Positions 16,400 to 29,813 of a DNA stretch of 64,000 bases are shown piece by piece. Each line of letters starts with the position of its first letter. The first letter of the stretch is position 1. The stretch is from Acidobacteriota bacterium (lineage in GTDB: Bacteria; Acidobacteriota; Terriglobia; Acidiferrales; UBA7541): the NCBI GenBank assembly GCA_003223215.1, contig QHYH01000080.1:1-64000 (forward strand). The letters run 5' to 3'. A program made the translations under genes and the position numbers. Under the pieces are notes generated by a model. The model was not told where the DNA came from and searched no databases. It saw only the letters and a list, made by a program, of their open reading frames with translations.

Positions 16400-16921
16400 C
16401 TAATCCACCACAAGTCCTTGCGCTCGGAACGGTCCGATCACCACATCCACGTGATCTCCGCGTTTAACTAACCGCCCCTTGTTCGAGAAAGCCATCCAGT
16501 AAGACTTCCCTGCCTCCGGTGTGGCGCTTTGGCGCAACTGGCCGACTTTTTCGAGCGAAGGAACCACCAACTGAACCCCTGCCTTTGGGTCAATCAGAAC
16601 CGGTTGGGCTTTCTTGTCGTTCAGCGCTTTGGCTTTCTCAGCATCCACCACATAGTAGGCGAAGCGAATCACTTCGCCTGACTCGGTCCACTTCACGCTT
16701 AGAGAGTTCACTCCCCAAACAAGCGCGTAGTACTTGCCAGCGCGTCCCGCGAACCGATCGGGATGGTAGTGCATCGGAGCAGATGCTGCTGGTTTAGGAC
16801 TCGCAACCTGCGAAGCCGTTTGGGCCCCCGCCGACAAAACAAGAAGCCCACCGGCAAGAACTCCCGCAAGCAGCGTCAACTTTGTTCTCAAGATCGCATT
16901 ACGGTCAAGCATCGTAGCCAT
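16400..16921 (-). CDS. Secreted protein of unknown function
   Basis: A 173-residue protein with a signal peptide (basic start, core LLAGVLAGGLLVLSAGA, cut near AQT). The mature part begins with an Ala/Pro/Ser linker and then a compact region with GKYYALVWGV, FAYYVVDAEKAKAL, GKSYWMAFSN and a final DVVIGPFRAQGLVVD. I know no family. It follows the giant-protein gene on the same strand, but a strong stem-loop lies between them, so it is probably transcribed on its own. Confidence 0.6.
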   Translation of the reverse strand: MATMLDRNAILRTKLTLLAGVLAGGLLVLSAGAQTASQVASPKPAASAPMHYHPDRFAGRAGKYYALVWGVNSLSVKWTESGEVIRFAYYVVDAEKAKALNDKKAQPVLIDPKAGVQLVVPSLEKVGQLRQSATPEAGKSYWMAFSNKGRLVKRGDHVDVVIGPFRAQGLVVD

Positions 16922-17002: not shown

Positions 17003-20000
17003 TTAGTTCGCGTTGTACGTAGTGTTGATTATGGTTGCAGGTTGCGTAGCTCCGGCGGTGCCGTACCCCATTACCGTGAGGCGTGCGCTCCCGTTCAGCG
17101 CCGCCCCTGTTGCTCCCGCAGGCGGCGTATAGGTTACCGTGATCGTGCAACTCGAGACCTGTCCCGGAGGCACGGCGGAAAGCGCAGTGCCAACCGCGCA
17201 CGTGCCACCGAGCGCCCAAGCAGTCTGAGGTGCACCGCTCACCCGTGTGATTGTAATTGATGTTGGGACAAAGGGCCCAGCATCAATGCTCGAACCGCCC
17301 GGGCAGGGTGCCGCGAGGCATAGATGGAGAGTGTTGGTGATCGTTACGGTTCCGGTCTTTGCAGTGGCGTTGGCCGGAGTTGTGGTCAGTGCCGGCGCGA
17401 GCGGCGTGATGCTTAGGGTTGCAATCGTGTCGTGGCCGGTGAGCGAAACGATCTCACCAGCACCGACACCGGCGGGGTTGATGACCAGGTTGGCATTCCT
17501 CGCTGCTTGCGACGCGCTGGTGGGGTTAAAGACCACGTTGATGTCGCAGCTTTGTCCCGGAGCGATCGTGGCGCCGGCGCAGCCAGGGCCATCGGCGGGA
17601 GGCGCGAAGCTGAAGCTTGCCAGATTGCAGCCAGCGACGCCCGTGCACGAGAATGTGATGCCGTTTCCGGGGGGGAAGAACAGCGCGACGCTGCCTGTGT
17701 TGATGACCTGGACGTCCTGATCCACAGTTGTCGGACTGCCGTGCGGCACGAAACCAAAGTCCAGCAATGCCGGTGAGACAGTGAAGTCCGTGTTCGAGCC
17801 AGTCCCGGTGCGTTGCACCGCGCCGGCGTCGATTGGACCGGGCTTCCTCGGGTTGTCGTAGAAGTCGAAGTTAGGAGCGTCTGTGTAGTTGGCGCTGCCT
17901 CCAGCGACCCTACCCTGGGCCGAGGATCCGGTCGCAATGCCGTAGTTGCCAAGCGCAGGACCGCCGCCGTAGTTTAGGTTAGGTCCGCCCACAACGGTCG
18001 GATTGGTCATCGACAACGGGCCCCAGTTGAGGTTGACCCAGTTGTTGCCTTCGTCCACCGTAGCGGCCGGAGCCAGGTTGAAGATCGGGTTGGGCACAGT
18101 CGCATCCGAAATACCCGGAGGTACTTGCCAGCCCGCCGCAAGGAGTCCCGGGGTTTCCGGGGGCATGCGTGAACCATCGCAGTACTGCTGGAGGAAGCGC
18201 GGATCCGCTGTTGAGTTGCCGGCGGCTATAACAGCAGACCCACCAGGCGTTAACACCGAATCCGTCGCGCGGAGTTGGACCCCGGAAGCATGGTTGGTCT
18301 GTCCCGTGTCACCGCGCACACCGATGTCCCAATACTGAGTACCGGTTACACAAGCCCCGGTTCCACCAGTGATGGTCGCGCTCCCGCTTGTCGTCGTGAT
18401 GGCATCGGTCCTCGACTGGCTCGTCACCGCACTGTGTGTGAAGGAGTTAAAGATGGAGACAATATTCTGCTGGTACGTCGGGCTGAGCGCGCCCACACCG
18501 ATGTAGAACGTGCCGTTGCGCCAGAAGATATTGTTCTCCAGCTTTGGATAAGAAACGCTCTTGCAAGACCCGTTCGCTGCCGTCGTCTGGAAATGGCCCG
18601 CCGGGCAAACCACAGTGAGAGTCGAGGGGAGATTCGCCGCCAAGACCGCGCTGTGCTGGATGGCCACCAAACCCGCAGGCTGAGGACACGTTGTCGTCGC
18701 CGTACTCGAGCAACTGCTTCCACCCTGGCTGGCAAGGGGAGCCCCAAGGGTGTTGAACAGGATACCTGACGAGGCAGTGCTGTTGTTGTAAGCGACGGTG
18801 TTGTTGATGATGTTGACATTGGGAGAATCCGCCAGCGAGATGCCGGCTCCATCCCAACCGCCGACGTTGTCGACGATGATGTTGTTGGTTACGGTCACTG
18901 TATTCCACTGACCGGGATCGGTCGGGAAGGCAACCATATCCGAACCGTTGACGGCATTGAAGGCGATGCCGGCTCCGGTGCCGCTCTCCGCGGCGTTGCC
19001 CATAATCAGGTTGGCATTGACCACCAGACCCGGACCAACACCATCGCTTGGCCCCACGCTGGCCGCGCCGCCAACTGCGGCAGTAGGGGCGCAATCCTGG
19101 TCGAGGAGGGCAACAATGGCACTGCAAACGAGGTCCTGATCCGGCGCGCCCATGACCACGAGACCGCCGCCGTTGGCCGGGATCGTGGGGTTGGTGCTCT
19201 GGTTGAAGATGATGGTGTTGTGTTCGATGTCACCGTTGAAGCTGAAACCAAGGTGACCGACACCGCCGCCATCTCCACCGGTCAGGTTGCCGCACACCCA
19301 GTTCCAGTTGAACTTGTAGTAGTCGGAGCCAGTGCAGATGCTGATGCCGCCTGACCCCGCCGGCGTGGCGGCGAACAATTCATCACCCGTGGAAGAGTTC
19401 GACGCGATGTAATTGTTATGAATGTTCACATTCACATTCTGGCAGTATGGCAGCACCGCACCAGGGACGGGGCTGTCCTCGCACGAACCCGGAGCCGCGT
19501 TTGTGGCGCTTCCCTGGACGTACGCGGGAGGATATTCACCCTGGCCGAGGTTGATGCCGCCCGAGAGCGTTCCGGCGTTGTTGTAGATCCGGTTGTTGGC
19601 GATTTGCAGGTTATGTCCCCAGCCGTGGATGTGGATGCCTCCGCCGCCCTGGGAGCTGTTCGTGATACCCAGTCCGTCGATGCTCGACGGGTTGCACATA
19701 AAGTTGCTGGGGTACGGATTGGGATTGTCGGTGCAATGGTCGGTCGAGACGCCCGGAGCGTTTTGCAGAAGTAGTGTCCCGGCCGGGAACCCTGCGAGTA
19801 ACGTAGCGTCGTAGGGATCCGATGGGAATACCACGCCCTTCGAGAGCACGGTAATACCCCCGCCTTCAAGAGCGCCCATCAAGGACGGCTCTTGCAGGAG
19901 TTCTGCCAGGTTGCCGTTGAGTTCGGCGCTCCATCCGACAGTGGCCTCTAGTGGTAAACGATCCACTTGGGCGTTCTTGCCGCCGGCTCCGGTGCTGCTC

Positions 20001-23000
20001 TCGTCGAACGCGTTGAAGTAGTTCCATCCGGCTCCCGGGCAACTGGCGGGCGCGCCAGTTGCGGGATTAAGTACGCCGTTTGCATTAAATTGATTTGGAA
20101 TTTGATTGACGTCAGTTGCACCTGGGTTGGTGTTGATTGGCGCGCCATTGATCCCCAAGCCGAAGAGACAAACGACCTGCTGCCGCCAGGTGTCCAATTT
20201 GCCTGCTGGGTGAGCATTGGCGTTGATAATGCTGGTCGCACCTCCGACACCTTGCAGTCGGACGGGCTTCCACATGATCAACATTTCGTAGTGGTTGGAG
20301 GTTGTTTCGACGCACGTGGTACTCGGCGCAGTTGCCGTGGCGCACGAGGTTCCGGCTGGTGCAGTCGCAGCTGGCGTAAACGCGGGGTCGACCATGATCA
20401 TGTCACCTGGAGTAGCGGCATCAATTGCAGCCTGGATCGACTGCGATGCCGTAACGTGCTTCGGTGGTTTGCCGCCAATCGTCACGGTGACCGTGTCAAT
20501 CGACTGCCTATGAATGGGAGCAGCTGCGGTGCCGACGTTCCCGGTGGTGATGATCAACTCACCGCAGAGGGCCGTCGAGCCGCTGTATTGCGCTTGCTGC
20601 TGAACGGGGCACGGTTGCACTCCGCTCGGCACGGTGACCGTGAGGAGCGAGTCGCTCCAAGTGCCAACGGTCGCGGCTACGCCGCCGATCGTGACAGTTC
20701 CCGCCGCAGTCCCAAAGCCAAAGTGGCGCTTTATGAACTTCTGGTTGTACGGAACTGTTGTAGCACTGGGTCCGGCGTACGCGTTGTTGGGCACCATCTG
20801 GTCGCCCAACGAGTGGATCGTCAGCGTATGACCCGCTGCGCTCACCCAGGGTCCAAGCCCGTCGCCGTCGACTTCAGCAACCGCTGGCGTGGCATCCGGA
20901 TAAGAGCAATCCACATTGTTGTATCCCGCACCCGCGAAAGCGGACGTGGGCACAACGGGAGTGTCCATGTACTGTGTCTGTCCCGGCATGAACGGGATCT
21001 CGTAGCAGAACTGGCTGTATTGCGAGTTGAACAACGGATCGGGCGTCGCTCCCGTTCCAGGATCGTTCATGCAGGTGACCATCATCGTGGGCCCATAGCC
21101 GGTCGGGTTGGGCGGGTTAACTTCCCAGCTCGAATACGTCAAGCCGTCGTAGGTGCCCCAATGATCGGAATACACGCGGTTGATTTCGTTTCCGGCCCAA
21201 TCCTTGATAGAGATTGGCATGTCCGGCGGAGAAAACTTCTCCCCGAATTGCGGCGAGAAGGGATCGAATTCTGAAGTGTAGTCGTCCGTGATGATTCCGG
21301 TGAAGTGGGCGGCGACGTGGGCGGAGCTGAAGATGTAGAACTTCGCCAGCGCCGACATCTGTTCCTGCAAGTCGATTTCCTTGCGGTCGCACAGAGGCCG
21401 TGTCGCCCCAGCGAAGGCCGCTACTTCCTGGGCCTGCGGGAAGATGCTCATGAAGTCCGGCACGACACGCTGCTCGCCTACGCAAGGCCAGAACTGCTCT
21501 ACGCTTCCCGTATCACCCTCGTGTCGCGGCGAACTACCCAGATCCGTCGTTTGGTTCTGGGCATTGTTGGCATTGTAGCTGGCAGCCACCGCGGCCTGGT
21601 CCGGCATAATATAAATGGAGCCGAGTGCGCCGAACTGTTGCGTGACCGGTGCGATGTAATTGTCGCCGATGAGGATGTTCTTGTCCTCTTCCTTAACCAG
21701 CTCGTAACCCGGAGGCACAACCACTTCCACCACATACTTGCCGGGGGGCAACATTGGAGAATTGAACCGGTAGGGGTCGGTTGTGTCGGGATTCGTCGTA
21801 CAACCCGTGCAGTTGGTCCCAAGGGGCTGGCCGTTTGTCGGGTTTATGCCCGTGACACTGGGGAACTGATAAAAGCCGTCGTAAGGTGCCGGCTGTATCT
21901 GGTTCCAGTTGTGCATGCCGTCATAGCATTTGAACTGGGAACTGTTCGGAATCGTGTGCGCCGCTGGCCCGCCGTGCCGGCTATTGTACACATCCAGGTA
22001 GTCCGGCTGGTTCTGCAGCGAAAAGTAGAACAGATCGCTGGTGGATTGCCCGGGGCAGTTCATATTCGGGAGACCGCTGACGGGGTTGAAACCCTGCGCC
22101 CAGTCGTCCCAACTGGTGGTCGTGGTATGGTCCACCAACGTGAGGGTGGGAGTCACCCCGTCCGCCGCAAACCCTTCTTTGTACAAGTTTACCGGTACGT
22201 TCGGCACGTCCGGCGTCCAGCTCACGTGCAGCAAGAGTTGTGGATCGTCAAATGGGCGCGTCGAAGCGTAGTTCACTTCGCCTCGGATGCCCCCGGTCTC
22301 GCCCACGGCAAAAGGCTTCTTGCCGAACTCAATGAAACTGTTCTGTCCGGAGAATCCTTGCCAGCCTTCGCTCGCGACCCACGGCGGATCGATCCGGCCC
22401 GTGCTGTTGTAGACCCCCGTGGTGCTCTTAGTCCCAGTGCAGTCCGCGTTTGAGCAGTAGACCGCGCCAGGGACGTGAAGATTGGCCGGTAGTGGAACTG
22501 CCTCATAAGTATTCGCCATGTTCGCGGCGATGGTCGAAGTGCCGCAGTTCGGGTACGGTGTGCCGCAGGGTGTGCCGTCGGCCGGTCCGCCCGCGTCGTA
22601 CACCACGTGGGTCCCCGTGGTCTTGTAACGCGTGGAATCCGTTTCAATCACATACCAGCTGAACAGCGGGAATATTTCGTTAAACCCGGCGTTCCCGTTC
22701 AGGTCGGTATTGTTGAAGTTGGAATAGCTGCCGTCGCGGAACCGAATGTTCGTCGGAACCAGCGAGAGCCCTGGTTCGGTGTCTTGACGAACACCATCCC
22801 CGTTCTGGTCGAAGAAGGTCGCAGTGATGATATTTGCCTGCCACTGGCTCGTGGCAATCTGGCCCAGATCCTTGGTTGCGCCGCCGCTCAGGCCGACCGG
22901 GGTCGAAAGGCCATCCACCAGCATATCGTTCCACTGGTCAAAGACGGTCAGTCTCCAGATCCCATCGGGAAGACCCGTGAGAGTGAACGTTCCATCGGAG

Positions 23001-26000
23001 TTGCACTTGGTAAAGGCGAAGTCTTCGCCGTCCGGATCGCCAAAGCTTACGTAGCACTGGGTGAAGGCGAAACTGTCGTTTGTGCCGCTGCCGAAGAGTC
23101 TTTCATCGGGTGTACGGCTCATGCGTTCGGTAGTGACGATGCCCGTCACTGTGTTGTGGCAATTACTGCCAGTGATGTTCGGGTCGGTGCCGCCGCAGAC
23201 GCCCGCCAAGCGGCTATTGATGATAGCGGGATTGGCAAAGCCGATGGCCACGTGCCAGCCGGCTGGACCGTACTCCTGGAAGTAGGTTGGTTCACCGATT
23301 CGCAGCCAGGAATCGTGCGCCTTTTGGCCGTCCAGGGTGTTGGTTTGCAGCCACTCTTCTCCTCTCGCAATCCGGTCAGCCGCGGGAGTAGCCACGACGC
23401 CGTACCGTCCCTGCATCATGTTCGGAACCAGGGCTTGGCCGGCAAGCGGGGAGGCAGTTATGCCGTCCGATTCGTACTCCGGGCAGGTCACAATTCTGCC
23501 CGTAATGCCGATCGTGCCTAAAGAACCGGGTGCGTTGCCGTTCGAGCTATCCATACCGACCAACGGTTTCTTCGTTATCGGGCAGGCGTCCTGCCCGGTG
23601 AGGGGGTCGATCGTTCCCGCCAGCGTGTTGGAAAGTGGCTGGTTGAACATGTCGTGGGTCAATTGTCCGGTAGCATCACCAGTGCCGCCGGCATCGTCAA
23701 AGAGCGTGATCTCGAAGCCACCCAGACCCGGCTCGTTGTTCGTATTCACGGCGGCGCCCGGGATTCCACCACCGCCATCCTGCTCGCCGTTCAGCGGGAA
23801 GTCATCCTCGAACACAAACACCGAGAGTTGTGCCGGCGGGAATGGAGTGGGTTGCGTCAGAATCGTGTAAGGCGTCGTTGGATATGCAGTGGTGCCTGTG
23901 GGAAGCGCGGGAATCGCAGCGCCGCCCATGCCGTGGCCGCAGCTTCCAGCCGCGACTCCTGCTGCGGAACAGTCAGGCGCACCTCCATAGGCGTTTATAA
24001 AAGGATTGGCCGCGTCGCCTGGCAGGACGGAAATGAAGTAGCGCTTGGTCGGATCGAGAACAATCGAGTTGGGGTAAGCAGGAGCAAACCCGTTCCCCGT
24101 GGTATCGGGACGGCAAACGCCATTGCCGATGTCGCACACGGCATTCACGTGAGTTCCCGTGGGCGTGACTATCGTCTGACCACCCTCGCAAGAGAGTTGA
24201 CCGGTGCAGCCTGCCGCCACCAAGGGCATATAGCTGGTGTGAAAATTCACACCAAAGGTTGGCGGAACTGTGGTGCCGGTTTGAACTGGGCAGCCTGCTG
24301 GCGGAGTGGCCGTGTTCGTTGTGCAGTTGGGGTCGACGTAGAACGTGCGATCTTCCTCAATCACCCAGCGATAGTCGGTAATCTCGGTTGTCTTGTCAGC
24401 GCCATCCAAAACTTTGACCTGAAGACCGCTTCCTGCTGGGAAGCTGACTGTAACGTTCGCGGAGCTGCTCGTCGTGCCCTGTGAGTTCTTCGCCGTATAC
24501 TGGAAAGTACAGATGCCCGCTGTCGGCGTCGTCCCTGGGGTCGACGGCACCGAAACGGTGAACCCGCCATTCGCGTCCAGAACATACGTTCCCGATCCGC
24601 ACGAGGTCGGGGTCGTCACCGGAACAACCGTAAGCGGATAGTTCTGTGAGTCTGTGTCAGGCAGCGAATTAGTCGTCGTATCGTACTGAGTTCCCAGGAC
24701 ACCGGGACTCTTAAGGGCAAACGATGTGGCTGTGTGTGAGGTATAGGCGCGGTTGTGAACGGTGATGCCGCCCAGGGTTCCTGCACCCAGCGTGACCGTG
24801 GCAGTCAACCCGGAGGAACATGTCGTACCTGTTACAGTGCCGTTCGCACAATACGTAAAGCTATCTGAGGTGCCCGTCCCAGTCGGAACGTAAGTAAAGG
24901 TACCGTCGGCGTTCAAAGTCACGGTACCGCTGGTTGGTGCTGCCAGGAGCTGCACGCCGTACACATTAGTGTCATTGGCGACCACGCCTTTACCGGGATC
25001 CGAGACGGTAAACGGCTGGCCCGCCACCCCCACCAAAGAGCTATAAGAATCCGCCCTGGCTATCGCATTGGCGAAAACACCGCTGGCGGTGCCAGTCGGG
25101 GCTGGGAGCCCAGCGCCGTTGACGCTGACGTAGGCCAACATACCGGAGTCGCGCGCCGTCGCATTGGCCGACAGGCTCAACTGGCGGTCATAAACTGGAA
25201 GAGCCGAAGCGCCAGCAGCCGGTGGGTTGATCATCACGTCGTAAGTTTTGCCCGCGGCCATGAATACTTCACTCTGCACGCGGGGAACGCCCGGCAAGGG
25301 GTTGCCATCCTCAGCAATCAGCGAGAAACCGCCTGGAGGAAGCGCTGGAGCAACCGCAGTCCCCGTTTGCGATCCGACGACCGAAGGTACGTGCATGCGC
25401 AGACCGGCATTCACCAGGCGCAGCAAAACCGTTCCGGTAATTCCGGTCGTGACAGGGAGACCCGTGGTTGCGTCAGTGCCGGCCGCCGCGTTGAACACGG
25501 AGGCGGCAGCATGCGTCTTGTCAAACGCTACGCCATTGATCAGGTAATACAACGGCGAATAGTTGACAGCCGGCGGATAGCAGGTCTGGTAGACGCCAGC
25601 GCCGGAGGACGGGTTTCCGCAGCCACCGGGCTGGCCGGACCACACCTTCGTCTCGCTGAAGCCAACGGTGTTAACAGCCGCCTGTACTGCGTTGTTCTGC
25701 ACCGGGTCGATTTCGCTGAAGAGGAGATTAGCTTCCCCACCGTAGGTCACGGCCGGAACCGCTGCAGTAGTCGTTGTAGCGGCCACAGCCGGATACGCTG
25801 TACCAGGCGTTGGACAAGCTGTCGTAGCAGCCGCGCCGGGCGCACAGGTAACCACCAACACTCCATATAGACCCATGGGGCCCTGGATGGATGGATGTGT
25901 GCCGGACTCAATCAGGTACGTGCCTGGCCGCAGCGGGGCAGTGGCAGTACCAAATGTCAGAGGACATGGATTCGTTGTGCACTGGCCGGCCGCGGGAGTC

Positions 26001-26572
26001 ACGCCCACTTCCGTCCCGAACGACTGCACGCGCGCTCCCTGTGTCGGCGGTGTACCCACTCCAGTCAGCCCCGCACCGGGCGCATCTCCAGCGATCGGCC
26101 ACGTGACCGGCTGCGCCTTGGTGTGATCTGGACTCGCGGTGGCGGTCCGTTGACCAAGGATTCCAAGGCCGCCGCCCAGCTGGCCAACAATGACCAGCGA
26201 GGTCGGCACAGTGTTCGGAGTCGTGGCCCCCGTCGGTGTGAAAGTCAAATTATTCGTGAGGCTGATGGTCAGGTACTGTCCCGAGGGAACCGTGATCACG
26301 ACCGGGGACCAGGTGCCCACCGTTGCGGTCCCTGCAGCGACCGCGTTATTCAACGCGACACACGTCGCGGTCGCTCCTGTTACCGCCGTGCCGCAACTGT
26401 AGCCCCACATCGGCACCGCTGACCCGTCCGGCAGGTATGCTTTCGCCGGCCCTGCGGTCAGATTAATCGTCTGCTGGCCAAGGGCCACACATGCCGCGAA
26501 GGGTAGAATTGCGAGTACTCTTACGGCAGCTTTCAAGATAGCTTTTAAATTATTCGTTCGCATCGTTGTCAT
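17003..26572 (-). CDS. Giant secreted multidomain protein with degenerate cupredoxin N-terminus
   Basis: A 3189-residue exported protein. Order of parts: signal peptide (1-32, ending VALGQ); a cupredoxin-like region to about 500 that resembles the neighbouring oxidase (QTINLTAGPAK...PDGSAVPMWGYSCG) but lacks the HxxHxH and HxH copper motifs; Ig/cadherin-like modules about 515-715; SdrD-B-like and carboxypeptidase-regulatory-like modules, one with a Ca-binding-type DQNGDGVRQD near 1255; a TIG/IPT-like module near 1950; a right-handed beta-helix of parallel repeats about 2020-2700 (HNNYIASNSS, IIVDNVGGWDG); an ASH/choice-of-anchor-D-like module about 2930-3050 (DFGFVPHGS); and a final related beta domain. 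No LPXTG, PEP-CTERM or other sorting tail is seen. It starts nine bases after the second oxidase gene, so it is the last gene of that operon. Probable surface or matrix role. Confidence 0.8.
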   Translation of the reverse strand: MTTMRTNNLKAILKAAVRVLAILPFAACVALGQQTINLTAGPAKAYLPDGSAVPMWGYSCGTAVTGATATCVALNNAVAAGTATVGTWSPVVITVPSGQYLTISLTNNLTFTPTGATTPNTVPTSLVIVGQLGGGLGILGQRTATASPDHTKAQPVTWPIAGDAPGAGLTGVGTPPTQGARVQSFGTEVGVTPAAGQCTTNPCPLTFGTATAPLRPGTYLIESGTHPSIQGPMGLYGVLVVTCAPGAAATTACPTPGTAYPAVAATTTTAAVPAVTYGGEANLLFSEIDPVQNNAVQAAVNTVGFSETKVWSGQPGGCGNPSSGAGVYQTCYPPAVNYSPLYYLINGVAFDKTHAAASVFNAAAGTDATTGLPVTTGITGTVLLRLVNAGLRMHVPSVVGSQTGTAVAPALPPGGFSLIAEDGNPLPGVPRVQSEVFMAAGKTYDVMINPPAAGASALPVYDRQLSLSANATARDSGMLAYVSVNGAGLPAPTGTASGVFANAIARADSYSSLVGVAGQPFTVSDPGKGVVANDTNVYGVQLLAAPTSGTVTLNADGTFTYVPTGTGTSDSFTYCANGTVTGTTCSSGLTATVTLGAGTLGGITVHNRAYTSHTATSFALKSPGVLGTQYDTTTNSLPDTDSQNYPLTVVPVTTPTSCGSGTYVLDANGGFTVSVPSTPGTTPTAGICTFQYTAKNSQGTTSSSANVTVSFPAGSGLQVKVLDGADKTTEITDYRWVIEEDRTFYVDPNCTTNTATPPAGCPVQTGTTVPPTFGVNFHTSYMPLVAAGCTGQLSCEGGQTIVTPTGTHVNAVCDIGNGVCRPDTTGNGFAPAYPNSIVLDPTKRYFISVLPGDAANPFINAYGGAPDCSAAGVAAGSCGHGMGGAAIPALPTGTTAYPTTPYTILTQPTPFPPAQLSVFVFEDDFPLNGEQDGGGGIPGAAVNTNNEPGLGGFEITLFDDAGGTGDATGQLTHDMFNQPLSNTLAGTIDPLTGQDACPITKKPLVGMDSSNGNAPGSLGTIGITGRIVTCPEYESDGITASPLAGQALVPNMMQGRYGVVATPAADRIARGEEWLQTNTLDGQKAHDSWLRIGEPTYFQEYGPAGWHVAIGFANPAIINSRLAGVCGGTDPNITGSNCHNTVTGIVTTERMSRTPDERLFGSGTNDSFAFTQCYVSFGDPDGEDFAFTKCNSDGTFTLTGLPDGIWRLTVFDQWNDMLVDGLSTPVGLSGGATKDLGQIATSQWQANIITATFFDQNGDGVRQDTEPGLSLVPTNIRFRDGSYSNFNNTDLNGNAGFNEIFPLFSWYVIETDSTRYKTTGTHVVYDAGGPADGTPCGTPYPNCGTSTIAANMANTYEAVPLPANLHVPGAVYCSNADCTGTKSTTGVYNSTGRIDPPWVASEGWQGFSGQNSFIEFGKKPFAVGETGGIRGEVNYASTRPFDDPQLLLHVSWTPDVPNVPVNLYKEGFAADGVTPTLTLVDHTTTTSWDDWAQGFNPVSGLPNMNCPGQSTSDLFYFSLQNQPDYLDVYNSRHGGPAAHTIPNSSQFKCYDGMHNWNQIQPAPYDGFYQFPSVTGINPTNGQPLGTNCTGCTTNPDTTDPYRFNSPMLPPGKYVVEVVVPPGYELVKEEDKNILIGDNYIAPVTQQFGALGSIYIMPDQAAVAASYNANNAQNQTTDLGSSPRHEGDTGSVEQFWPCVGEQRVVPDFMSIFPQAQEVAAFAGATRPLCDRKEIDLQEQMSALAKFYIFSSAHVAAHFTGIITDDYTSEFDPFSPQFGEKFSPPDMPISIKDWAGNEINRVYSDHWGTYDGLTYSSWEVNPPNPTGYGPTMMVTCMNDPGTGATPDPLFNSQYSQFCYEIPFMPGQTQYMDTPVVPTSAFAGAGYNNVDCSYPDATPAVAEVDGDGLGPWVSAAGHTLTIHSLGDQMVPNNAYAGPSATTVPYNQKFIKRHFGFGTAAGTVTIGGVAATVGTWSDSLLTVTVPSGVQPCPVQQQAQYSGSTALCGELIITTGNVGTAAAPIHRQSIDTVTVTIGGKPPKHVTASQSIQAAIDAATPGDMIMVDPAFTPAATAPAGTSCATATAPSTTCVETTSNHYEMLIMWKPVRLQGVGGATSIINANAHPAGKLDTWRQQVVCLFGLGINGAPINTNPGATDVNQIPNQFNANGVLNPATGAPASCPGAGWNYFNAFDESSTGAGGKNAQVDRLPLEATVGWSAELNGNLAELLQEPSLMGALEGGGITVLSKGVVFPSDPYDATLLAGFPAGTLLLQNAPGVSTDHCTDNPNPYPSNFMCNPSSIDGLGITNSSQGGGGIHIHGWGHNLQIANNRIYNNAGTLSGGINLGQGEYPPAYVQGSATNAAPGSCEDSPVPGAVLPYCQNVNVNIHNNYIASNSSTGDELFAATPAGSGGISICTGSDYYKFNWNWVCGNLTGGDGGGVGHLGFSFNGDIEHNTIIFNQSTNPTIPANGGGLVVMGAPDQDLVCSAIVALLDQDCAPTAAVGGAASVGPSDGVGPGLVVNANLIMGNAAESGTGAGIAFNAVNGSDMVAFPTDPGQWNTVTVTNNIIVDNVGGWDGAGISLADSPNVNIINNTVAYNNSTASSGILFNTLGAPLASQGGSSCSSTATTTCPQPAGLVAIQHSAVLAANLPSTLTVVCPAGHFQTTAANGSCKSVSYPKLENNIFWRNGTFYIGVGALSPTYQQNIVSIFNSFTHSAVTSQSRTDAITTTSGSATITGGTGACVTGTQYWDIGVRGDTGQTNHASGVQLRATDSVLTPGGSAVIAAGNSTADPRFLQQYCDGSRMPPETPGLLAAGWQVPPGISDATVPNPIFNLAPAATVDEGNNWVNLNWGPLSMTNPTVVGGPNLNYGGGPALGNYGIATGSSAQGRVAGGSANYTDAPNFDFYDNPRKPGPIDAGAVQRTGTGSNTDFTVSPALLDFGFVPHGSPTTVDQDVQVINTGSVALFFPPGNGITFSCTGVAGCNLASFSFAPPADGPGCAGATIAPGQSCDINVVFNPTSASQAARNANLVINPAGVGAGEIVSLTGHDTIATLSITPLAPALTTTPANATAKTGTVTITNTLHLCLAAPCPGGSSIDAGPFVPTSITITRVSGAPQTAWALGGTCAVGTALSAVPPGQVSSCTITVTYTPPAGATGAALNGSARLTVMGYGTAGATQPATIINTTYNAN

Positions 26573-26581
26573 CCCTCTTCG

Positions 26582-28201
26582 TCAGTTGGACTCGTCAATC
26601 TGAAATTCACGGGAATCGACCAGCATCATCATCAACATCCCACCTGGGAAAATATTGTTGGTGGTAATTTCGCGCTCATTGTGCGAGTGCCACATGAAAG
26701 CAAAGCCAGCCTCACCGGTGGGCGAGTTCGCGATCGTGCCCGAGGGCGGAGTTGTACCCGTGGGGCCTACCGCGCGGACAGTTGCATTGGGACCAAGGTA
26801 TGGGCTGCCCCCGAACCAGGCACCATTCGCCAAAATGTTCGGGTCGGGCAGAGTCGCTGGACCGCCACCTGCTACGTCGCCGAACGGCGCCGCTTCCAGA
26901 GGTTTGTTGTGGTCCTGGCACCACTCGTAATAATTAAGCGCTGTTGTCGCCGCGGTGTTGTAGCCGTTCGCATCCGGAGTGCAGGGCAGTTTGGCAGTCG
27001 AGTCAGAAGAAGCGGGATTGTGGCCGTATGGATCCCAGTTCAATCCCTTACCCGTCCAATAGAAAATCCCGTCCATGGCCAGTCCCGGAGTCGTTGTCGT
27101 GGTGAAGAGCAGAGGCCCGGCGAGATTGACTTCACCGGCAGTGGTCGAGCTCAGAATCAGGTTTCCATCACGCCCCAGAATGCGGACGTGGTTGCCGTGC
27201 TCGTGGAACGGATGCTGCCACCGGCCCTGGCCTATAATGCGCAGTAGCACCTGTTCGCCCGGATGCATGTGCGGGTTGCCGTTGTATGGCTGGTGCGGGT
27301 ACTCTCGCGCATAGTTGGGATCCATGTCATCGGGCATCGACCGCCCATTGATCATGAAGTAGGCCGGATGATACGGCTCGGTCGGAACATCGAGATGGCA
27401 GGTCGGAGAAGTCGCCGCGCAGCCAGTCCTTGCGGTGACTTGCGCTAGCGCGTTCTTGTGTATCCCGGGATCCATCTCGGAAAACTGGAACAGGTATTCC
27501 CGGTCATAGCAGCTCCTCGGGTTGTCGTAGGCCGACGCCGCCAGCCGGTAATCCGCTTCCGCCGAGTTGCCCGGAGCAACATAGTGCGCAGGAATACTTC
27601 CTACCGCGGTACAGCCAGTGGGAACCGCGGTCGGTACCACAATAATTGCGCCATACAGGCCCATTTCCACCTGCAAGTCGCCTTGCGTGCCGCTGTAATA
27701 GGCGCGTGTCCCCGGCGACGAAGCAACAAAGGTGTAGCTAACAGTATTAGTCGTGCAGGCAGTTGGGGTTGGGCAGGGTAGTGCCTCATGAGTGAGAAGA
27801 CCAACCACTCCGCCCGTCGCTGTCACATTAAAGCCCGGAAACAGAATCGAAGTATTGCCGGCGGAAGTAGGAAGATTATTGGTCAGGTTGACCGTGACCG
27901 TTTGTCCTTCCATGACGATCAGCGTGGGACCGGGAACCTGCATCGTGGGGCAGGTGGCACCCGGCATCAACGTGGCCGGAGGATTGAACCCAGAAGGCGC
28001 ACTGCTGCAGCCATACCCCCAGGAGTAAACGGACGCTCCGTCCGGCTGGCTGATAAAAGCATCGCGGGCCGTCAGGTTGAAGGTCGTCCCAGTGATGCCC
28101 GGCGCCGAGGCGTAAACCGTGGCGGCGAACAGCATCACCAGCACTGGTACCAGAAGCAATCGGGATTTCGAAAAAGTTGTGTTCATTTTCATCGTCCTCA
28201 T
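26582..28201 (-). CDS. Secreted multicopper-oxidase-like protein carrying the HxH/WHSH half-site
   Basis: A 539-residue exported protein (leader ends near YASAPG) with two or more cupredoxin-like domains. Copper motifs seen: HPFHEHG (H330, H333, H335) and near the C-terminus FMWHSH (H505, H507) followed by a Met-rich GGMLMMML. There is no HCH motif, so there is no type 1 copper Cys. In laccase terms this supplies the two motifs of the domain that contributes half of the trinuclear cluster. The other half is in the preceding gene, 10 bases upstream. I infer the two polypeptides combine to form one oxidase. Substrate unknown; metal oxidation such as Mn(II) or Cu(I) is possible. Many cysteines suggest disulfides. 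Confidence 0.82.
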   Translation of the reverse strand: MRTMKMNTTFSKSRLLLVPVLVMLFAATVYASAPGITGTTFNLTARDAFISQPDGASVYSWGYGCSSAPSGFNPPATLMPGATCPTMQVPGPTLIVMEGQTVTVNLTNNLPTSAGNTSILFPGFNVTATGGVVGLLTHEALPCPTPTACTTNTVSYTFVASSPGTRAYYSGTQGDLQVEMGLYGAIIVVPTAVPTGCTAVGSIPAHYVAPGNSAEADYRLAASAYDNPRSCYDREYLFQFSEMDPGIHKNALAQVTARTGCAATSPTCHLDVPTEPYHPAYFMINGRSMPDDMDPNYAREYPHQPYNGNPHMHPGEQVLLRIIGQGRWQHPFHEHGNHVRILGRDGNLILSSTTAGEVNLAGPLLFTTTTTPGLAMDGIFYWTGKGLNWDPYGHNPASSDSTAKLPCTPDANGYNTAATTALNYYEWCQDHNKPLEAAPFGDVAGGGPATLPDPNILANGAWFGGSPYLGPNATVRAVGPTGTTPPSGTIANSPTGEAGFAFMWHSHNEREITTNNIFPGGMLMMMLVDSREFQIDESN

Positions 28202-28211
28202 TTCCGCTCTC

Positions 28212-29813
28212 CTAATTAATGCGGACCTCGGTCATGAGCCCGCCAAAATTCTCTGCGTCGTTGGACAAGTGGTCGAGGTTCGGCGTGTACAGATAGAACA
28301 CGCTGCCCGACGGATAGCGCGTCGTATCGGTGGCGTCCAGAATCACGTCGAGCGACTCGCCGCCGGCGAGCGTGATCGAATTAGTGTTGTAGTACAGGTT
28401 GTTACCCGCTTGATCGCGTAGCAGCTTGGCGTTGTAGCCAATCACTGTCATCGGGATTCCGAGCGACGCCAGCGTCTGATATTCGGTAACGTCCAGGTCG
28501 GAAATCCGCAGCAAGGCCTTTTTGCCTGCCGGAATGTTGATGATCGAAGGCAGCGGCTGGGAGAAGTGCATCTTGCCATCCGCTGACTGCGTTGCCAGGG
28601 GACCGGTTGTGACTGTATCCGGGTAGCTGCGGCCATTGAGCAGGAAATACTTGTCTTTCATGTCCGCAAATTGTTCCGGGTTGAACGTCATGCCCACAAA
28701 GTGGAAGCTGGGATCGAAACCGTGGATCTGGATGGGATACTCGACATCGTAATAGGTTGAGCCATCACCATCGTTGTAGGCATACCCGCCGCTGTGGCCG
28801 CCATTCACAACAGTGGACGCGGCCGTCGCTGCCGTGTTGATCGCCGGGAGCGGATTGCTGCACAGGATGTCTTGCGTGGAATCGCATTTCGTGCGGTTAT
28901 CAAGCTCCTGTTGTTGCAGGGAAGCATAGAGGTCACCGCCAAGCGCGACGCGGTCCTGCCGCGGCCGCACATAAATTTGGCCGACCATGCCCATCTGCAA
29001 GTGCTCGGGAGGCGTGATGTGGCAGTGCCAGAAGTACGTCCCGGCATCCGGTGCCAGGTAGTAGTAAGTGAAGCTGCCGCCGATGTTGATGGCCACCGAG
29101 GCGTCGGGCACGCCGTCGTAGAAGGTCGAAGCGTTGGGATAACCGTGGAAGTGGACGGTGTGCTGCTCGAACAAGTCCGGCCGCATGATCATGCCCACGT
29201 TCGTGAGCGTGAGGAAGAATTCGTCATCCTCATCGATCGCAAACAACGGTGCGGGAATATTGCCGTTCAGGACTCCCACGTCAATGATTGGGCGAGGATC
29301 TACGTGCCCATCTAAACAGGGCGCGACGCACTTGCCATCTGCTATGGCATCCAGATCGGCAGTTAGCCCCACCGCGCCGTTATAGCCAAATCCGATGGGG
29401 ACGGAGGTCCCGCTGCTGGGAGTGGCCATCGTGGCCGGGGCCCCGGGCAGCAGCGCGCTCGGGGATGGCACGTTGAATTCGGAAGGGAAATCGGTACCGG
29501 GCTGGCCATTCGCAATCTTGCTAAGCCCGGACAATGGCCCGAATGAGAACATGTATGTTTGCGTCCCGTCGCCCATCGTCGAGTAACCATCACCGCCAGA
29601 AATCTGCTGGCATTTGATGGCCCCGTTCACATTTGTCGGAGCGGTGTACGCTGGTTCCGAATTATTGTTGGCGGCATTCGGGTGCGTGATGGTGCTGGTC
29701 GGGCACTGCACGCGAAACGACTGAGCATTCGCGACCAGCGGCGTCAAACAGCACAAGAGTACGAACAAGACAGCTTGGTACAACTTTTTCATAATGGCCT
29801 CGCGTGTTTGCAC
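28212..29813 (-). CDS. Secreted multicopper-oxidase-like protein carrying the type 1 copper half-site
   Basis: A 533-residue exported protein; leader core VLFVLLCCLTPLVANA. Copper motifs: HTVHFHG (H218, H221, H223) and WHCHITPPEHLQMGM (H263, C264, H265, H271, M276). This gives a complete type 1 site plus half of a trinuclear cluster. Spacing in the second motif is two residues longer than in laccase or CueO. No second HxH/WHSH pair is seen in the rest of the protein. The missing pair is in the next gene, 10 bases downstream. It is the first gene of the three-gene operon, preceded by 372 bases with candidate operators and then by a two-component system on the same strand. Confidence 0.85.
   Translation of the reverse strand: MQTREAIMKKLYQAVLFVLLCCLTPLVANAQSFRVQCPTSTITHPNAANNNSEPAYTAPTNVNGAIKCQQISGGDGYSTMGDGTQTYMFSFGPLSGLSKIANGQPGTDFPSEFNVPSPSALLPGAPATMATPSSGTSVPIGFGYNGAVGLTADLDAIADGKCVAPCLDGHVDPRPIIDVGVLNGNIPAPLFAIDEDDEFFLTLTNVGMIMRPDLFEQHTVHFHGYPNASTFYDGVPDASVAINIGGSFTYYYLAPDAGTYFWHCHITPPEHLQMGMVGQIYVRPRQDRVALGGDLYASLQQQELDNRTKCDSTQDILCSNPLPAINTAATAASTVVNGGHSGGYAYNDGDGSTYYDVEYPIQIHGFDPSFHFVGMTFNPEQFADMKDKYFLLNGRSYPDTVTTGPLATQSADGKMHFSQPLPSIINIPAGKKALLRISDLDVTEYQTLASLGIPMTVIGYNAKLLRDQAGNNLYYNTNSITLAGGESLDVILDATDTTRYPSGSVFYLYTPNLDHLSNDAENFGGLMTEVRIN

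What the first reader, a model, noticed from the sequence alone, without database searches (positions are those of the whole stretch)
26582..29813. Split multicopper oxidase: two secreted proteins each hold half of the copper site
The first gene's product has HTVHFHG (H218, H221, H223) and WHCH...H271...M276, a complete type 1 copper site plus half of a trinuclear cluster. The second has HPFHEHG (H330, H333, H335) and WHSH (H505, H507) but no HCH. Laccase-type enzymes carry all four motifs in one chain. Here they are divided between two exported polypeptides encoded 10 bases apart, with the type 1 domain first, a permuted order. I infer an obligate heteromeric oxidase whose trinuclear cluster forms at the interface. 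The family of large Mn(II) oxidases (MnxG/MofA/OmpB-like) has unusual motif orders, so a metal-oxidising role is a candidate, but the substrate is unknown.
Basis: partly seen in the sequence, partly recalled or inferred. Interest (0 to 1): 0.87.

Follow-up and report, generated by a model that had tools for sequence, protein, structure and literature searches.

The report
Three-subunit copper oxidase, active site split
A secreted copper enzyme of soil bacteria appears to be built from three separate proteins, two of which each carry half of the oxygen-reducing copper site, and the same gene set recurs in two bacterial phyla, where the one annotated example I read calls all of them hypothetical.

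Summary
Two adjacent minus-strand genes (P1, P2) share one multicopper-oxidase (MCO) site: P1 has the type 1 site and four trinuclear-cluster histidines, P2 the other four. P1, P2 and P3-N are homologous; P1 domain 1 and P2 domain 2 are closest in the PDB to type C two-domain MCOs (3g5w, 2zwn), which form trimers with clusters between protomers. I read the operon as a degenerate trimer of three different subunits with one surviving cluster at P1.D1/P2.D2. In 80 named loci the order P1-P2-P3 holds wherever the contig allows, with no P1-P2 fusion; one unnamed locus (L045) lacks P2. In a divergent branch the scaffold is a separate gene or fused to P1. Type II secretion genes adjoin some copies, so an extracellular oxidase is likely; the substrate is unknown. 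Membership of MnxG/MofA/OmpB is unsupported: those are single chains, and no sequence of them was compared. AlphaFold of the linked P1-P2 pair failed (pLDDT 47.5), so the interface is inferred, not modelled.

The parts
28212..29813 (-). P1: two-cupredoxin subunit with leader-like N-terminus, 533 aa; domain 1 (about residues 165-290) carries the type 1 copper site and half of the trinuclear cluster, domain 2 (about 300-533) has no HxH
   Evidence: 3g5w E 6.4e-21; domain 2 on 3g5w domain 2, Z 11.5, rmsd 2.2 over 121, other MCOs tied
29142..29162 (-). HTVHFHG, P1 residues 218-224 (H218 type 1; H221 and H223 trinuclear cluster, assigned by homology)
28986..29030 (-). WHCHITPPEHLQMGM, P1 residues 262-276 (C264, H271, M276 type 1; H263 and H265 trinuclear cluster)
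28202..28214 (-). P1 stop codon TAG overlapping a Shine-Dalgarno-like AGGAG, then P2 ATG 10 bases after the stop: likely translational coupling
   Evidence: stop context TAGG in 66 of 76 junctions examined, first start codon 10 bases on in 47 of 76, SD-like sequence near the stop in 68 of 76
26582..28201 (-). P2: two-cupredoxin subunit with leader-like N-terminus, 539 aa; domain 1 lacks copper motifs, domain 2 carries the other half of the trinuclear cluster
   Evidence: (domain 2 on 2zwn and 3g5w domain 2)
27194..27214 (-). HPFHEHG, P2 residues 330-336 (H333 and H335 cluster ligands by homology; H330 also conserved, role unknown)
26681..26692 (-). WHSH, P2 residues 504-507 (H505 and H507 cluster ligands by homology)
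   Evidence: (weak secondary stretches of about 5 bits at this motif)
17003..26572 (-). P3: 3189-aa protein with leader-like N-terminus, third gene of the operon
25088..26476 (-). P3-N: third two-cupredoxin unit (about residues 33-495), no HxH
   Evidence: profile match to P2 at probability 100.0 and E 2.8e-45, to P1 98.9; a separate gene in the divergent branch
17003..24655 (-). Scaffold part of P3 (about residues 640-3189), weak adhesin-like, Ig-like and beta-helix matches, all under Pfam cut-offs; a separate upstream gene in the divergent branch
16400..16921 (-). Conserved small protein (173 aa, no Pfam match) downstream of the operon
   Evidence: homologue in 35 of 80 named loci and in the CH34 locus L154
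30186..32855 (-). Upstream response regulator and histidine kinase genes, possible local regulator
   Evidence: matches in 9 of 80 named loci each, but these are common families

Best explanation
The three genes encode the subunits of one extracellular multicopper oxidase: a pseudo-homotrimer descended from a type C two-domain MCO by gene duplication. Each subunit is a two-cupredoxin unit. P1 domain 1 holds the type 1 copper, which takes electrons from the substrate, and four of the eight trinuclear-cluster histidines; P2 domain 2 supplies the other four across the P1-P2 interface, where O2 is reduced to water. The other two interfaces have lost their copper sites; P3-N completes the ring and, through its giant C-terminal part, tethers the enzyme outside the cell. 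Shown: motifs, their conservation, homology of the three subunits to each other and of the copper-bearing domains to type C MCOs, gene order, scaffold shuffling. Inferred: the complex, its interfaces, copper loading and catalysis, export by type II secretion. Substrate unknown.
For: P1 has cluster histidines only in domain 1 and no HxH in domain 2; P2 has no HxH in domain 1 and no HCH, so neither alone has the usual set. Ligands: P1 33 of 33, P2 34 of 35 ORFs in 35 homology-found loci. PDB profiles: P1 best 3g5w (6.4e-21) and 2zwn (1.7e-16); P2 domain 2 best 2zwn (1.2e-6) and 3g5w (1.8e-4), the second motif only as weak secondary stretches. P1 domain 2 model: top row 3g5w domain 2, ties within Z 1. 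P1, P2 and P3-N are mutual profile homologues. P1 found before P2 in 78 of 80 named loci, the other two with P2 at the contig start; P3 after P2 in 77 of 80, the other three within 300 bases of the contig end; no ORF with both P1 and P2 motifs in 80. In the Burkholderiales sample the same 7 of 349 genomes have strong P1 and strong P2 hits. The scaffold is fused to P3 (window clade), separate, or fused to P1 (L171). T2SS genes next to some copies.
Against: No usable model of the pair: AlphaFold gave mean pLDDT 47.5 and pTM 0.36, and the P1 model has a poor domain 1. No biochemical data. P3 membership in the complex rests on homology, operon and fusions. The whole-P2 profile has 3gdc first, then 4f7k and 3g5w, nearly tied, so type C ancestry is clear for P1 domain 1 and P2 domain 2 but not for every domain. 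L045, in a 74% complete genome, shows P1 cut after residue 330 followed directly by P3, with no P2. L120 has Ser for H223 in one ORF. H330, H313 and H371 are conserved without an assigned role.
Confidence: 0.76

Rival explanations
1. P1 and P2 form the split oxidase as a P1-P2 heterodimer (or a P1-P2 multimer), and P3 is only a separately acting adhesin or anchor that happens to carry relic cupredoxin domains.
For: P3-N has no HxH and no invariant His or Cys in the 10 sequences aligned; most of P3 is scaffold-like.
Against: P3-N stands alone as a two-cupredoxin gene in the divergent branch and still follows P2; P2 and P3-N are close profile homologues; two-domain MCOs form trimers (PMC13151041 passages).
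Confidence: 0.14
2. The set is a split member of the large Mn(II)-oxidase group MnxG/MofA/OmpB/McoA and oxidises Mn(II) or Fe(II) outside the cell.
For: Large MCO with extra domains; cytochrome c (541 aa) and PPIC-type isomerase genes near the CH34 copy, resembling the mof operon (mofA, mofB isomerase, mofC cytochrome c; PMC8218464 and PMC5566968 passages); matches to that cytochrome in 2 of 80 named loci and in 10 of 37 other loci besides CH34.
Against: MofA, MnxG and McoA carry all four motifs in one protein (PMC8218464 passages). Bacterial six-domain MCOs are reported with type 1 in domain 2 and the cluster between domains 2 and 3 (PMC3600357, parts 1-2 of 4 read), not the type C arrangement seen here. 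No P1 hit in an open frame over 600 aa in 349 Burkholderiales genomes at 1e-12, though only the best candidates per genome were scored. No MofA, MnxG or OmpB sequence was compared. The PPIC gene had no match in the 80 named loci.
Confidence: 0.2
3. P1 and P2 are decayed paralogues, each binding copper for another purpose (for example electron transfer or copper storage), without forming a trinuclear cluster.
For: No biochemistry; P1 could act as a blue copper protein.
Against: The trinuclear histidines of both proteins are kept down to about 40% pairwise identity, which decay would not give, and the two sit together in every locus seen with enough contig except L045.
Confidence: 0.05
4. The split is a sequencing or assembly artefact of one long MCO gene.
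For: The genes lie 10 bases apart.
Against: No ORF with both motifs in 80 named loci from many assemblies; separate ORFs on complete replicons, CH34 and Paraburkholderia AP028202, where they are separate annotated CDS.
Confidence: 0.01

Closest known systems
Type C two-domain multicopper oxidases (3g5w Nitrosomonas europaea; 2zwn metagenomic two-domain laccase)
   Same: Type 1 site in the first cupredoxin domain, trinuclear half-sites in domain 1 and domain 2, best PDB matches of P1 and of P2 domain 2, class that forms trimers with inter-protomer clusters (PMC13151041 passages)
   Different: There one protein makes the trimer; here three different proteins, with one cluster predicted, large inserts and a giant scaffold
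Ceruloplasmin and other six-domain MCOs
   Same: Six cupredoxin domains with one surviving trinuclear cluster (PMC3600357)
   Different: Single chain; cluster between domains 1 and 6, or 2 and 3 in algal and bacterial forms; here domain 1 of the first and domain 2 of the second subunit, on separate chains
MnxG / MofA / McoA / OmpB large bacterial MCOs
   Same: Large, extra domains, cytochrome c and isomerase genes nearby in CH34
   Different: All four motifs in one chain for MofA, MnxG, McoA (PMC8218464 passages); sequence relation not tested here
Mnx complex (MnxG with MnxE and MnxF)
   Same: A multi-protein MCO assembly
   Different: In Mnx only MnxG is an MCO; [quoted passage not shown]
Hetero-oligomeric laccases such as that of Podospora (mentioned in PMC10673308, passages read)
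   Same: Oxidase made of more than one kind of chain
   Different: Only a passing mention was seen; nothing there says that one copper cluster is shared between different gene products

Membership tests
Multicopper oxidase superfamily | Cupredoxin domains with Cu-oxidase profiles over cut-off | tested here: met
   P1 55.4 bits and P2 43.8 bits to PF07732, cut-off 21; P3-N has no Pfam Cu-oxidase match and is linked by profile comparison
Multicopper oxidase superfamily | Eight trinuclear histidines plus type 1 His2Cys(Met) | tested here: met
   Met only by P1 and P2 together: 4+4 histidines, type 1 on P1
Type C two-domain MCO | Type 1 site in the N-terminal domain | tested here: met
   P1 domain 1
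Type C two-domain MCO | One polypeptide supplies both half-sites | tested here: not met
   Half-sites lie on P1 and P2; no HxH in P1 domain 2 or P2 domain 1 (alignments)
Type C two-domain MCO | Trimeric assembly with inter-protomer cluster | not testable with these tools
   Pair model failed; no complex prediction available
MnxG/MofA/OmpB group | All four copper motifs in one chain | tested here: not met
   No single ORF with both halves in 80 named loci
MnxG/MofA/OmpB group | Sequence clustering with MnxG, MofA, OmpB | not tested
MnxG/MofA/OmpB group | Mn(II) oxidation or Fe(III) reduction phenotype | not testable with these tools
   Needs experiment
Six-domain MCO (ceruloplasmin-like) | Six cupredoxin domains in one chain | tested here: not met
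   Six domains over three chains

The most novel reading that the evidence does not exclude
A distinct class of multicopper oxidase: a secreted heterotrimer of six cupredoxin domains, evolved from a type C homotrimer by keeping one active site across two different proteins and losing two, mounted on a giant surface scaffold and exported by its own type II secretion system, acting as an extracellular metal-oxidising machine in soil Acidobacteriota and Burkholderiales.
Probability: 0.3. Interest if true: 0.85.

Novelty: new variant of a known kind. Interest (0 to 1): 0.72.

Why it matters
No paper in the library searched here describes an MCO whose trinuclear cluster needs two different gene products (most subscription papers are not held). 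It would be an intermediate between homotrimeric two-domain MCOs and single-chain six-domain ones such as ceruloplasmin. It also gives a concrete candidate for an extracellular oxidase in soil bacteria and in the metal-resistance model Cupriavidus metallidurans CH34. In the one annotated record read here the three genes are called hypothetical, and motif-based surveys that ask for all four motifs in one protein would miss them. The question is directly testable in a genetically tractable laboratory strain.

Tried and rejected
AlphaFold of the linked P1-P2 pair (alignment A3, 38 rows) failed: mean pLDDT 47.5, pTM 0.36; not used as evidence. Larger alignments for the pair (A8, A9) were discarded because the low identities of the P2-only rows (38-50%) and the consensus showed them laid on P1; this was not checked column by column. 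The P2-P3 alignment A4 was made but not folded because the second job went to P1 domains 1-2 (domain 2 good, domain 1 poor). A11 was not folded.

Foldseek on that model ranked three-domain laccases and CotA first at low TM-scores; VIA-align then put 3g5w first but with many rows tied within Z 1, so it supports an MCO cupredoxin fold for P1 domain 2 and only leans to type C. The whole-P2 profile does not single out type C.

Viral contigs gave no confirmed relatives for P1 or P2. No P1 relative in an open frame over 600 aa was found in 349 Burkholderiales genomes at 1e-12 (only the best few candidates per genome were scored). Assembly artefact rejected. Tandem repeats in the operon region: none found.

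Bias told: rows of A10 and A11 were picked with motif patterns, and the genome-contig scan used the peptide patterns FMWHSHN and GGML[MQ]MM, so ligand invariance in those alignments, and of P2 H505 and H507 in the 80 named loci, is partly by construction; the counts to trust are those for the 35 loci from protein and profile searches (some of these are the same contigs as named loci, for example L031 and L049). Only the best 80 of 164 relatives were kept by the tool. The motif pattern found P1 beside P2 in 73 of 80; L113 and L120 have P1 with altered or unread motif and five loci have P1 cut or missing at a contig end. L094 was dropped from the joining. In L060 P1 is broken over two frames. 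One search used 76 of 80 loci.
Full report
WHAT IS THERE. The two ORFs are exactly as described, on the minus strand: P1 28212-29813 (533 aa, GTG start) and P2 26582-28201 (539 aa), 10 bases apart. P1 carries H218, H221, H223, H263, C264, H265, H271, M276; P2 carries H330, H333, H335, H505, H507 and no HCH. P2 aligns with the N-terminus of P3 of relatives at 24-32% identity, E 1.7e-12 to 7e-5, and with its own P3 at 29%, 2.6e-5. All three begin with hydrophobic leader-like stretches (read from the sequence; no signal-peptide program was run).

COMPLEMENTARITY. In ordinary MCOs eight histidines, four in each of two domains, bind the trinuclear cluster (PMC3600357, parts 1-2 of 4 read). P1 domain 1 has four plus the type 1 ligands; P2 domain 2 has four, and H330 is a fifth conserved histidine without an assigned role. 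The only HxH of P1 are at 221 and 263; those of P2 at 311, 333 and 505; P3 has none in its first 500 residues. The P2 HMH at 311 is R-M-H in the four compact relatives. Of the P1 domain 2 histidines H364 and H515 vary while H371 is kept in 32 of 33, the other a gap. In 35 loci found by protein or profile search, P1 ORFs were read in 33 loci with all eight ligands in 33 of 33, and P2 ORFs in 34 loci (35 ORFs) with each ligand in 34 of 35, the listed odd one a piece of the frame-broken P2 of L044. In the 80 named loci, P1 was found in 78: H263, C264, H265, H271 and M276 in 78 of 78; H218 75, H221 76 and H223 75 of 78, the rest gaps except one Ser (H223, L120); P2 80 of 80 for all five, partly by construction of the scan.

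HOMOLOGY. P1 searched alone in the PDB gives 3g5w and 2zwn first, 1.2e-14 and 1.3e-12, and as a profile 6.4e-21 and 1.7e-16. The alignments show the type 1 motif in domain 1 of those proteins, which defines type C (definition from PMC13151041, passages read). P2 domain 2 as a profile of five divergent members gives 2zwn (1.2e-6) and 3g5w (1.8e-4) first, aligned at HxxHxHG to their domain 2 and, as weak secondary stretches of about 5 bits, at the HxH of their C-terminus. The whole-P2 profile, dominated by the copper-less domain 1, has 3gdc, 4f7k and 3g5w nearly tied at about 2e-9. The C-terminus of P1 aligns weakly (7.8 bits) to domain 2 of 3g5w, and the confident part of the AlphaFold model of P1 (domain 2; whole model mean pLDDT 60.9, domain 1 poor) superposes best on 3g5w domain 2, Z 11.5, rmsd 2.2 over 121; 2zwn is at rank 6, Z 11.3, rmsd 2.4 over 122, with other MCOs tied. 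Profile-profile comparison: P1-P2 99.4% (5.2e-22), P2-P3N 100% (2.8e-45), P1-P3N 98.9% (3.6e-17). So the operon is three diverged copies of one two-domain unit: the first keeps domain 1's site, the second keeps domain 2's, the third keeps neither. Two-domain MCOs form trimers in which residues of two protomers make each cluster (PMC13151041). A ring of P1, P2 and P3-N with one cluster at P1.D1/P2.D2 follows by inference.

CONSERVATION OF THE SET. The own genome (8.8 Mb, 279 contigs) has three copies, on C80, C110 and C28. Of 61 genomes (own plus 60 relatives), 8 have strong P2 hits and 9 strong P1 hits, the extra one being the fragmentary G029. A scan of genome contigs gave 164 relatives, of which the tool kept the best 80: Acidobacteriota MAGs and isolates (Granulicella, Occallatibacter), Paraburkholderia, Burkholderia, Cupriavidus, Collimonas, Pandoraea, and MAGs with other labels. 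P1 precedes P2 in 78 of 80, P2 of the other two lying at the contig start; P3 follows in 77 of 80, the other three ending within 300 bases of P2; no ORF joins the P1 and P2 motifs. A tblastn of P2 against plasmid records gave 8 records, 2 Cupriavidus metallidurans and 6 Paraburkholderia. Frequencies, centres included: 13 of 347 Acidobacteriota genomes at 1e-30, 7 of 349 genomes of the Cupriavidus order by strong hits, the same seven for P1 and P2, 2 of 398 Pseudomonadota at 1e-25. The exception to the rule is L045, in a 74% complete genome: P1 cut after residue 330, then P3.

A DIVERGENT BRANCH. In four Burkholderiales-order genomes (L142-L145) and in eight of ten acidobacterial loci fetched (L165-L172) the order is scaffold, P1, P2, P3-N, with the scaffold as its own gene or, in L171, fused in one 2290-aa ORF to a P1 with both domains. 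The scaffold is thus joined to P3 in one branch and to P1 in another, which argues that these parts work together.

JUNCTION. P1's stop is TAG followed by G in 66 of 76 junctions examined, and the first start codon in the P2 frame lies 10 bases on in 47 of 76. In the window TAGGAG is stop and Shine-Dalgarno-like sequence at once, suggesting coupled translation and matched amounts.

NEIGHBOURS AND EXPORT. In some Burkholderiales loci type II secretion genes lie directly upstream (T2SSE, secretin, prepilin-like; Pandoraea L123; CH34 L154) or 9-19 kb downstream (Paraburkholderia AP028202). In the 80 named loci, matches to the CH34 T2SSE were found in 7, to its secretin in 17 including acidobacterial ones, to two prepilin-like proteins in 10 and 11, to two LolA-like proteins in 23 and 18, to its cytochrome c in 2 (plus 10 of 37 other loci besides CH34), to its PPIC isomerase in none (flanks are short or cut in many). 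The CH34 genome paper describes a small chromosome-2 gsp cluster, Rmet_4704 to 4713 (PMC2864759, passages); it is probably this one, but locus tags were not available here. A small conserved protein downstream (window 16400-16921) has matches in 35 of 80. In the window itself a two-component system lies upstream; none of the CH34 secretion genes had a match in the window and none of the 20 neighbours scanned with Pfam looked like one.

WHAT IT DOES. Most likely an extracellular oxidase coupling one-electron oxidation at the P1 type 1 site to O2 reduction at the P1-P2 cluster. Metal ions, phenols or humic matter are all possible; gene context only leans to metal oxidation and no result decides it.

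KNOWN OR NEW. Searches of the held library for split, heteromeric, two-subunit, heterodimeric or heterotrimeric multicopper oxidase gave 0 papers; a combination of terms for heterotrimers gave four papers, none about such an enzyme by title, one of them looked into by passages; it mentions hetero-oligomeric laccases in passing. Acidobacteria with multicopper oxidase and type II secretion gave none. Most subscription papers are not in that library. The six-domain literature read lists clusters only between domains 1-6 or 2-3 (PMC3600357). I call it a new variant of a known kind.

LIMITS. The interface, copper loading and activity are inferred. The pair model failed. MnxG, MofA and OmpB sequences were not compared. 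That 3g5w and 2zwn are called type C is recalled; it agrees with the domain position of the motif.

Noticed in passing
L171 5857-12726 (minus strand): Natural fusion of the scaffold and a two-domain P1 in one 2290-aa ORF, whereas the window clade fuses the scaffold to P3.
   Followed up: partly
L148 and genome G067 (Acidobacteria bacterium AB60): One genome holds five strong P2 copies, one of them much diverged.
   Followed up: no
window 16400-16921 (minus strand): Small conserved protein without Pfam match near the operon in both phyla (35 of 80 named loci; also CH34 and the compact loci L142-L145).
   Followed up: partly
L045 7594-8724 and 1-7590 (minus strand): A locus where P1 breaks off after domain 1 and P3 follows at once, without P2: deletion, decay or misassembly.
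   Followed up: partly
L154 (Cupriavidus metallidurans CH34, NC_007974.2): The operon sits in a cluster with small type II secretion genes, two LolA-like proteins, a cytochrome c and a PPIC-type isomerase; the PLSDB gene table has no annotation there.
   Followed up: partly
L066 and L080 downstream of P2: P3 is broken into several ORFs in these assemblies, possibly pseudogenes or sequencing errors in the scaffold part.
   Followed up: no
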